Assembly (NCBI GenBank): GCA_016839555.1
Contig: JAEOUA010000003.1
Span: 62,001-126,000, forward strand
Length of the DNA: 64,000 bases
From: Promethearchaeota archaeon
GTDB taxonomy: Archaea; Asgardarchaeota; Lokiarchaeia; Sigyniarchaeales; SOKP01
Direction: 5' to 3'
Shown: one piece after another, positions 58,638-60,650 of the stretch
Layout of the letters: each line of letters opens with the position of its first letter
Numbering within the stretch: the first letter of the stretch is position 1
Notes under the pieces: generated by a model
The model's database searches: none
What the model saw: the letters and a program-made list of their open reading frames with translations, nothing else
Told to the model about the DNA's origin: nothing
Program-made: the position numbers and the translations under genes

Positions 58638-58645
58638 TTAAAAAT
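58638..58645 (+). promoter_or_regulatory. Possible TATA box of the permuted 5S rRNA gene
   Basis: TTAAAAAT centred about 25 bases before the first base of the terminal stem at 58666, the normal archaeal TATA distance. In such AT-rich DNA the match is weak evidence; its value is in the spacing. Confidence 0.35.
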
Positions 58646-58665
58646 CAACTATGGTTTTTTTTTTG

Positions 58666-58839
58666 GCCACATAAAATGCAGCTCTTCGCTGCAGCGCCGA
58701 AAGTTAAACTTTGTTGCGTTAGCGATAGTACTTCTGTTGAAATCAGCGGGAAACGCTAAACTGTAAGTTCGCTTACGGTCATAGTAACAAGGGATAGTAC
58801 CCGGTCCCATACCGAACCCGGAAACGCTTTTTATGTGGC
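58666..58839 (+). rRNA. rrf: 5S rRNA, apparently circularly permuted
   Basis: All conserved 5S pieces are present but in the wrong order. Canonical 3' half first (about 58699-58767): AAAGTTAAAC, helix II strand CTTTGTTGC, loop E region GCGATAGTACT, CGGGAAACGCTAA, CTGTAAG. Then TTCG (58768-58771) caps helix I, and the canonical 5' half follows (58772-58824): CTTACGGTCATAGTAACAAG, CCCGGTCCCATACCGAACCC, GGAAA. Helix I CTGTAAG/CTTACGG, helix II GTAACAAGG/CTTTGTTGC and helix V TTAGCG/CGCTAA all pair. The new ends pair as an 11-bp stem (58666-58676 with 58829-58839), beside a hairpin TGCAGC/GCTGCA at 58677-58693 and a GCG/CGC stem. The new break lies in the loop B/helix III side. It stands alone, not in an rRNA operon. 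Confidence 0.88.
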
Positions 58840-59475: not shown

Positions 59476-59949
59476 TTATTTCCGATTTCCTTTTTTAATC
59501 ATTTGGATTTCCAATAAAATTCCTAGAGAATCTATTGTGTCAAAATAGGCAACATATTGCGTAAAGAATTGTCCAATAAACACCGCTTCTATATTATTCT
59601 TCTTAAATAATTCAATATACGGATCAAGATCTTCTACCATACCACTTATATGTTGAAGTCCTTCGTGTCCATTATCCAAGAATTCTTGATGTATTCCTTC
59701 ACCAGAGATTGGCTGAATAAGTTCAATTTGTTTGCCCCAATATCGACTCAATGCAAGTCTCAATGTGCAAATTGATTTTTTTCCCCGAAAAACAACTTCA
59801 GATGTTACATCTGGAAAAATTGCAAATTTCGGCATATTCCATAATTTCTCCATTACTTTAGTTTGTTTTTCAACATCTTTATATACATATCCTAATTGCA
59901 TAATTTCCAAATCTCCAATATTCATATCTAATGATTTTTCGTCTGACAT
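59476..59949 (-). CDS. VOC (glyoxalase/bleomycin-resistance fold) protein, copy 1
   Basis: 157 residues in two beta-alpha-beta-beta-beta units: LEIMQLGYVYKDVEKQTKVM with the next strands, then GEGIHQEFLDNGHEGLQHIS and SYFDTIDSLGILLEIQMI-like end. The H of GLQHIS and the E of LLEIQM are the positions of metal ligands in the VOC superfamily, as in methylmalonyl-CoA epimerase and glyoxalase I. The substrate is unknown. Copy 2 at 60177-60650 is a close paralog; a 103-base stretch (59644-59746) is identical to 60345-60447. Confidence 0.8.
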   Translation of the reverse strand: MSDEKSLDMNIGDLEIMQLGYVYKDVEKQTKVMEKLWNMPKFAIFPDVTSEVVFRGKKSICTLRLALSRYWGKQIELIQPISGEGIHQEFLDNGHEGLQHISGMVEDLDPYIELFKKNNIEAVFIGQFFTQYVAYFDTIDSLGILLEIQMIKKGNRK

Positions 59950-60176: not shown

Positions 60177-60650
60177 TTATTTTCGACTTCTTTTTTTAGT
60201 CATTTGTAATTCCAATAGAAAACCTAAAGAATCAGTTGTATCAAAATATGAAAAATACTGCTTTCCTATATTTCCACTAAATACAGCTTCTATATTATTC
60301 TTCTTAAATAATTCAATGTATGAATCAAGATCTTCTACCATACAACTTATATGTTGAAGTCCTTCGTGTCCATTATCCAAGAATTCTTGATGTATTCCTT
60401 CACCAGAGATTGGCTGAATAAGTTCAATTTGTTTGCCCCAATATCGAGTGAATGCAATTCTAGTAGTATAAACTGATTTTTTCCCCCGATAAATAACTTC
60501 ATTTTTGTTATCAGGAAGAATTGCAAATTTCGGCATTCCCCACACCTGCTCCATTATCTTAGCTTGTTTTTCAACATCCTTATAGACGTAGCCTAGTTGG
60601 AAAATTTCCAAATCTCCTATATTCATATCTAAAAGTTTTTGATCTGACAT
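60177..60650 (-). CDS. VOC (glyoxalase/bleomycin-resistance fold) protein, copy 2
   Basis: 157 residues, same length as copy 1 and very similar throughout (LEIFQLGYVYKDVEKQAKIM, GEGIHQEFLDNGHEGLQHIS, SLGFLLELQMTKK). Putative metal ligands are kept (H of LQHIS, E of LLELQM). The N-terminal half differs by many substitutions while the central segment is identical in DNA, which points to recent gene conversion. It diverges from the membrane protein gene at 60787, with a shared 136-base promoter region. Confidence 0.8.
   Translation of the reverse strand: MSDQKLLDMNIGDLEIFQLGYVYKDVEKQAKIMEQVWGMPKFAILPDNKNEVIYRGKKSVYTTRIAFTRYWGKQIELIQPISGEGIHQEFLDNGHEGLQHISCMVEDLDSYIELFKKNNIEAVFSGNIGKQYFSYFDTTDSLGFLLELQMTKKRSRK

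What the first reader, a model, noticed from the sequence alone, without database searches (positions are those of the whole stretch)
58666..58839. Circularly permuted 5S rRNA gene
Conserved 5S segments appear with the 3' half ahead of the 5' half. The canonical ends are joined by a TTCG tetraloop on helix I, and new ends are made in the loop B/helix III side, closed by an 11-bp stem. Helices I, II and V pair with several wobble pairs, which argues for a real, functional fold. Natural permuted 5S rRNAs are known from some mitochondria; I know of no established archaeal case. It would have consequences for 5S processing, ribosome assembly and gene finding, because standard 5S models may miss it.
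Basis: partly seen in the sequence, partly recalled or inferred. Interest (0 to 1): 0.95.

Follow-up and report, generated by a model that had tools for sequence, protein, structure and literature searches.

The report
Half-swapped 5S gene, likely circularized
In this Asgard archaeon the only 5S ribosomal RNA gene found is written with its two halves swapped, and its transcript is predicted to be cut and sealed into a circle that restores the normal molecule; the same swapped order turns up in most Asgard families examined.

Summary
Window 58665-58839(+) is a circularly permuted 5S rRNA gene (3' half, TTCG-capped helix I, 5' half), and the only 5S-like locus RF00001 finds in its draft genome, as two sub-threshold halves. 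It is not a one-off: I collected 131 permuted loci from 129 of 227 genomes of the phylum, in 21 of 29 families. Matching named records are Loki-, Heimdall-, Hod-, Jord-, Odin- and Baldrarchaeota. Families f2, f8, f21, f27 and f28 keep normal order. Covariation in the permuted order is strong. A strict script found this geometry in 81 of 131 loci and 19 of 21 families, but in 0 of 21 f15 loci. EndA (two) and RtcB are encoded. Closest precedent: permuted circular SRP RNA of Thermoproteus. Ten paper searches found no permuted archaeal 5S. Not shown: transcription, cleavage, the circle.

The parts
58638..58644 (+). TATA-like stretch TTAAAAA about 25 nt upstream of the leader; possible promoter (inferred)
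   Evidence: Read; TTTATA-like motifs are seen by eye upstream of several relatives. No control was run.
58665..58676 (+). 5' strand of the terminal (leader/trailer) stem, GGCCACATAAAA
   Evidence: Pairs with 58829-58839 (11 bp, plus G58665-T58840)
58677..58693 (+). Leader hairpin TGCAGC-TCTTC-GCTGCA
   Evidence: Sequence; the minimum-energy fold pairs these bases otherwise
58694..58696 (+). Clamp GCG, pairs with CGC 58825-58827
58697..58700 (+). BHB central helix, leader strand CCGA (3 of 4 pairs with CCGG 58818-58821; A-C mismatch at the inner end)
   Evidence: shuffle p 0.030 for the whole geometry
58701..58703 (+). BHB bulge 1, AA|G; predicted cut after 58702
   Evidence: geometry; cleavage itself untested
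58703..58823 (+). Predicted circular 5S rRNA, 121 nt
   Evidence: Joined sequence scores 54.0 bits with the normal-order HMM
58703..58767 (+). 3' half of 5S: loop B side, helix II 3' strand (58709-58715), helix IV (58719-58724/58754-58759), helix V, helix I 3' strand (58761-58767)
58768..58771 (+). TTCG loop sealing helix I
   Evidence: 86 of 131 loci have a 4-nt loop and 104 of 131 a loop of 3-6 nt here
58772..58823 (+). 5' half of 5S: helix I 5' strand (58772-58778), CATAG, helix II 5' strand (58786-58792), helix III (58801-58804/58818-58821)
58818..58821 (+). BHB central helix, exon strand CCGG (also the 3' strand of helix III in the mature fold)
58822..58824 (+). BHB bulge 2, AA|A; predicted cut after 58823
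   Evidence: cleavage itself untested
58825..58839 (+). Trailer: CGC clamp, T, TTTTATGTGGC (3' strand of the terminal stem)

Best explanation
The locus is a circularly permuted 5S rRNA gene (3' half, TTCG-capped helix I, 5' half) whose transcript is likely cut at a bulge-helix-bulge formed by its leader and trailer and ligated into a 121-nt circular 5S rRNA. Shown: the order, the covarying structure, no other 5S detected in the draft genome, and a join that rebuilds the consensus. Inferred: the leader strand CCGA (58697-58700) pairs with CCGG (58818-58821) so that the bulges AA|G and AA|A are opposed; the tRNA splicing endonuclease (two EndA-family proteins in this genome) cuts both; RtcB joins A58823 to G58703; the CCGG strand then pairs into helix III and the RNA folds as ordinary 5S with a closed helix I. 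The circle probably enters the ribosome as it is, because helix I ends in a short loop in most loci.
For: Permuted order conserved in 131 loci from 129 of 227 genomes, 21 families; strong covariation. In 130 of 131 loci the joined canonical-order sequence beats the unjoined one against an HMM of 31 normal-order relatives, median 44.3 against 23.1 bits (the join was optimised on a profile of those 31). At joins within 3.5 bits of the best, BHB geometry (central helix >=3 of 4 bp, 3-nt bulges, outer helix score >=3) is present in 81 of 131 loci: f1 36 of 56, f15 0 of 21, other families 45 of 54; at least one locus in 19 of 21 families. Full 4-bp centre 75 of 131; as good or better in <=1% of shuffled flanks 61 of 131, <=5% 83 of 131. 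Central strands change together (CGTG:CACG, CCGG:CCGG, CTGG:CCAG, CCGA:TCGG, GTCG:CGGC, CCGC:GCGG). Of the 81, 73 joins restore the 7-nt spacing between GAAC and TTAAR/TCAAR (63 by regex, 10 read from its reject list); 6 are the other breakpoints and rebuild their own consensus: loop C (L016, L018, L020, L060, L090) and 5' of helix III (L011). EndA-family at 104.3 and 72.9 bits and RtcB at 563.7 bits in the same genome. The same architecture and enzyme are shown experimentally for Thermoproteus SRP RNA (PMC4731332).
Against: No RNA evidence at all. The strict script finds no BHB in 0 of 21 f15 loci (a leader hairpin interrupts the outer helix; by eye and a CAGG:CCTG-like centre remains) and misses 20 of 56 f1 loci, many with a loop C insertion. 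In the window the central helix is 3 bp plus an A-C mismatch (shuffle p 0.030). L011 has shuffle p 0.217; L015, which I read by eye as a loop C breakpoint, was not recovered (p 0.997). In 2 of the 81 (L048, L135) the script chose an implausible join. Minimum-energy folds of three precursors show the outer stem but not the central helix, and the MFE of the joined window sequence lacks helix II, which its centroid shows. In pure cultures of other archaea 5S is said not to be processed by circularization (PMC12918454, passage).
Confidence: 0.82

Rival explanations
1. Circularized, then reopened: after BHB joining, the loop of helix I is cut so that the mature 5S is a linear molecule with ordinary ends, as permuted pre-tRNAs end up as ordinary tRNAs.
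For: Permuted tRNA genes end this way (PMC10085705, passage). The loop of helix I varies, with longer inserts in some genomes such as L027, L031 and L105.
Against: 86 of 131 loci have a 4-nt loop and 104 of 131 one of 3-6 nt, leaving little to cut; no known nuclease site was identified (not searched systematically).
Confidence: 0.2
2. Linear permuted 5S: the transcript is trimmed at or near the terminal stem and works as a linear RNA with its new ends by helix III, as in some mitochondria; no ligation.
For: Permuted mitochondrial 5S is known (Valach 2014, named in PMC10085705, passage). Folds show the terminal stem but not the central BHB helix. The f15 loci fail the strict BHB test.
Against: It does not explain why leader and trailer keep two 3-nt bulges around a co-varying 4-bp helix, nor why joining there restores the exact consensus at three breakpoints.
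Confidence: 0.14
3. Pseudogene, tandem-array fragment or assembly artefact that only looks permuted.
For: These are mostly metagenome assemblies; the pattern scan did return three false cases of this kind outside Asgard.
Confidence: 0.01

Closest known systems
Permuted circular SRP RNA of Thermoproteus tenax/uzoniensis (PMC4731332; abstract and section 3 read)
   Same: Permuted essential RNA gene, missing from annotation; leader and trailer form a BHB at the breakpoint; cut by a two-subunit tRNA splicing endonuclease; circle restores a conserved loop
   Different: SRP RNA, not ribosomal; known in a few Thermoproteus species; its old terminal helix was lost, whereas here helix I is kept and capped. 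Circle proven there, predicted here
Permuted tRNA genes (Soma 2007, recalled; mentioned in PMC10085705, passage)
   Same: Reversed halves, circular intermediate
   Different: The tRNA is re-linearized; not an rRNA
Permuted mitochondrial 5S rRNA, mtPerm-5S RF02547 (Valach 2014, recalled; named in PMC10085705, passage; paper not held)
   Same: 5S with canonical ends joined and new ends elsewhere
   Different: Organelles; no BHB that I know of; RF02547 does not match this genome
Archaeal 16S/23S circularization and the permuted Pyrococcus 23S (PMC12918454, PMC7758197; passages)
   Same: Circularization of archaeal rRNA, by BHB/EndA for the precursors; circular 16S and 23S transcripts reported for Asgard archaea
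   Different: Those genes are in normal order; PMC12918454 says that 5S is not processed this way in the cultures studied
Circular 5S reads in Halobacterium and Sulfolobus (PMC12558985, passages)
   Same: Circular RNAs containing 5S sequence
   Different: From normal-order genes, with variable junctions, read by the authors as possible degradation products

Membership tests
5S rRNA (RF00001) | Conserved 5S sequence blocks and helices I, II, IV, V | tested here: met
   Covariation of these helices in permuted order, 94.8% of cells paired; joined window 54.0 bits against the normal-order HMM
5S rRNA (RF00001) | Reaches the Rfam gathering score as encoded | tested here: not met
   27.2 and 17.2 bits against 38, as expected for swapped halves; the joined sequence could not be put to Rfam with these tools
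5S rRNA (RF00001) | Present in the ribosome | not testable with these tools
   No ribosome or RNA data
mtPerm-5S (RF02547) | Match to the Rfam model | tested here: not met
   No match at E<=10 in the window's genome
BHB-circularized permuted RNA genes | Reversed order of halves | tested here: met
BHB-circularized permuted RNA genes | BHB (4-bp central helix with 3-nt bulges) joining leader and trailer | tested here: inconclusive
   Window: 3 of 4 central pairs, shuffle p 0.030. Set: 81 of 131 loci and 19 of 21 families, 0 of 21 in f15
BHB-circularized permuted RNA genes | Join restores the conserved sequence | tested here: met
   Window CCGAACCCGGAA^GTTAAAC; 73 of 81 at the main breakpoint plus 6 at the others
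BHB-circularized permuted RNA genes | EndA and an RtcB-type ligase in the genome | tested here: met
BHB-circularized permuted RNA genes | Junction reads or RNase R resistant circle | not testable with these tools

The most novel reading that the evidence does not exclude
In most Asgard lineages, including Heimdall- and Hodarchaea, the ribosome carries a covalently closed circular 5S rRNA made from a permuted gene by the tRNA splicing machinery, with the breakpoint moved to new positions at least twice: a circular form of a universal ribosomal RNA as the normal state of most of a phylum.
Probability: 0.6. Interest if true: 0.97.

Novelty: new variant of a known kind. Interest (0 to 1): 0.92.

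Why it matters
It would explain why the 5S gene is hard to find in Asgard genomes: the authors of closed Heimdallarchaeum genomes wrote that it could not be predicted (PMC8813620, passage). It would make a universal rRNA dependent on tRNA splicing enzymes, add 5S to the permuted RNA genes rescued by circularization, force changes in gene finders and 5S databases, and give a directly testable prediction (a circular 5S) for the archaea nearest to eukaryotes, for which circular 16S and 23S transcripts have just been reported.

Tried and rejected
RF02547 (mitochondrial permuted 5S): no match in the window's genome. R1 rows in G040, G042 and G178 (best E 0.0016-0.0063) overlap normal-order 5S and were dropped from the permuted count. 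Normal-order hits in G023, G098 and G150 were set aside as bacterial-looking (judged by eye). G070:C117, a normal-order 5S with a 23-nt BHB intron at the same site, looked like an Asgard intermediate; its RpoB is 48% identical or less to every other listed Asgard match, so I treat the contig as another archaeon's. Three non-Asgard matches of the genome contigs pattern carry normal-order 5S with chance or tandem upstream matches; two of the three match R1 weakly (28.3 and 24.4 bits). The first profile test with linear gaps and the second with long insertions allowed place the join differently in some f1, f15 and f17 loci; I report the second (81 of 131; the first gave 86 of 131 at geometry score >=7, a different cut-off). 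In one search the geometrically best place anywhere in the flanks coincided with a near-best join in only 44 of 131 loci, because long stems also score in other registers. First pattern drafts had wrong spacing. No species tree was made, so ancestral against repeated permutation is open.

Full report
What is there. Window 58665-58839(+) holds a 5S rRNA gene in which the 3' half (58703-58767) precedes the 5' half (58772-58823); the canonical ends are fused by TTCG on a 7-bp helix I, and an 11-bp stem (58666-58676/58829-58839) closes the transcript. Rfam 5S sees two adjacent halves below threshold and nothing else in 3.74 Mb at E<=10.

How widespread. In the first relatives search RF00001 passed its cut-off in 8 of 58 genomes, while many of the window's family showed weak, often split matches. 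A covariance model of the permuted core (R1, 16 sequences) was run on the 227 genomes held for the phylum: 114 of 227 matched at E<=0.1. Three of these (G040, G042, G178) are weak matches over normal-order 5S and were dropped, leaving 111. R1 with that search's stricter filters missed family f15 entirely; a second search gave 8 of 23, 6 of them real, and RF00001 gave weak matches in 22 of 23. Reading the loci shows the permuted order in 19 of 23 f15 genomes. In total 131 loci from 129 genomes in 21 families were analysed; contig-edge pieces in G141, G089 and G081 were left out. RF00001 passed its cut-off in 64 of 227: these are normal order in families f2, f8, f21, f27 and f28, plus G023, G098, G150 (bacterial-looking), G070 (contaminant) and G087 (on the permuted locus itself). 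I saw no genome with both a permuted and a convincing own normal-order 5S. About 36 genomes show neither. One f4 locus (G047, 9% contamination) resembles f22 and may be a stray contig.

Names. The one genome-contig scan (84,980 species) with a permuted-order pattern returned 64 stretches. 61 are titled Loki-, Heimdall-, Hod-, Jord-, Odin-, Baldrarchaeota or similar or Asgard group; all 61 match R1 at E<=1e-6. The other 3 are not permuted 5S. The pattern finds 62 of my 131 loci, so absence outside Asgard is weak evidence. Six window-family (f1) contigs have the same length as records titled Lokiarchaeota or Lokiarchaeia (G005, G010, G144, G146, G148, G163). G065 has the contig length of Ca. Heimdallarchaeum endolithica CP084167.1 and has two permuted copies. 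[quoted passage not shown] Against this, PMC9723677 lists a 5S gene for a Jordarchaeum and a Borrarchaeum MAG (passages); how it was called I do not know.

It is a functional structure. 68 of 68 loci given to R1 match over the full model (16 of them built the model, and most of the others had been found with R1). Of 25 pairs, 23 show changes on both sides; covariation score 0.899 against 0.210 for shuffles and 0.089-0.162 for slid partners. The alignment was fitted to the model, which favours the structure somewhat. Helix I pairs across its loop in the permuted order, and helix II pairs the first and last segments.

How it likely works. Leader and trailer give outer helix, 3-nt bulge, 4-bp helix, 3-nt bulge. 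In f13: GGTGCGGCATCC|CGTG|AA^A|GTCAAGCC with CACG|GA^A|GGATGCCGCACC; cutting and joining gives CACGGAAGTCAAGCC. In f20: CTCATCG|CCGG|AA^G|TTAAGCC with CCGG|AA^A|CGATGAG gives CCGGAAGTTAAGCC. Different registers of the cut, and three breakpoints (3' of helix III in most; loop C in L016, L018, L020, L060, L090; 5' of helix III in L011), rebuild the consensus. Counts: geometry in 81 of 131 loci (f1 36 of 56, f15 0 of 21, others 45 of 54), 19 of 21 families; full 4-bp centre with outer helix and shuffle p<=0.01 in at least one locus of 16 of 21 families. The 4-nt central strand of the leader mimics the 5' strand of helix III and competes with it, which may be why minimum-energy folds of three precursors show the outer stem but not the central helix. 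Two EndA-family proteins occur: one (198 aa) has a His-containing motif that I recall as catalytic, the other (208 aa) appears to lack it (by eye). This suggests the heterotetrameric enzyme that PMC4731332 describes as having the most relaxed BHB recognition. RtcB is present.

Known or new. Ten paper searches showed no report of a permuted 5S gene in Asgard or other archaea; 'permuted 5S' and 'circular 5S rRNA' each returned no paper. The library lacks bioRxiv and most subscription journals. Known: circular RNAs from normal-order 5S in Halobacterium and Sulfolobus, read as possible degradation (PMC12558985, passages); permuted mitochondrial 5S, permuted tRNA and permuted circular SRP RNA (PMC10085705, passages; PMC4731332, abstract and section 3). 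PMC12918454 (passages) reports circular 16S and 23S transcripts of Asgard archaea and says that in pure cultures 5S is not processed that way. So the kind, a permuted RNA gene rescued by BHB circularization, is known; its use for a ribosomal RNA, through most families of a phylum, is new as far as I could see.

Noticed in passing
L152 (G070:C117:8277-8414): A normal-order archaeal 5S with a 23-nt insertion that has BHB geometry at the very site where Asgard 5S genes are broken; the contig is probably not Asgard (RpoB 48% identical or less to other listed matches). A possible picture of an intron-bearing ancestor state.
   Followed up: partly
L155 (G211:C15, family f8): Normal-order 5S with about 33 extra bases after GTTAA; possible 5S intron or expansion segment.
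   Followed up: no
L092, L093, L095, L097, L100, L102, L103, L105 (family f1): Hairpin insertion in loop C (CCGAA...TTCGG), an expansion segment or further intron in the permuted 5S.
   Followed up: no
L019 (G043, f4): Permuted 5S with a 9-bp hairpin (CATTCGATC...GATCGAATG) inserted near loop B.
   Followed up: no
L121 (G111:C510): Two permuted 5S copies in tandem, 157 nt apart.
   Followed up: no
G042:C1:1399892-1400758 (f2): Three equally scoring normal-order 5S matches in tandem, about 375 nt apart, in a family of the same order as the window's.
   Followed up: no
window 59476-59949 and 60177-60650 (-): Two similar neighbouring 157-aa ORFs, apparently a tandem duplication.
   Followed up: no
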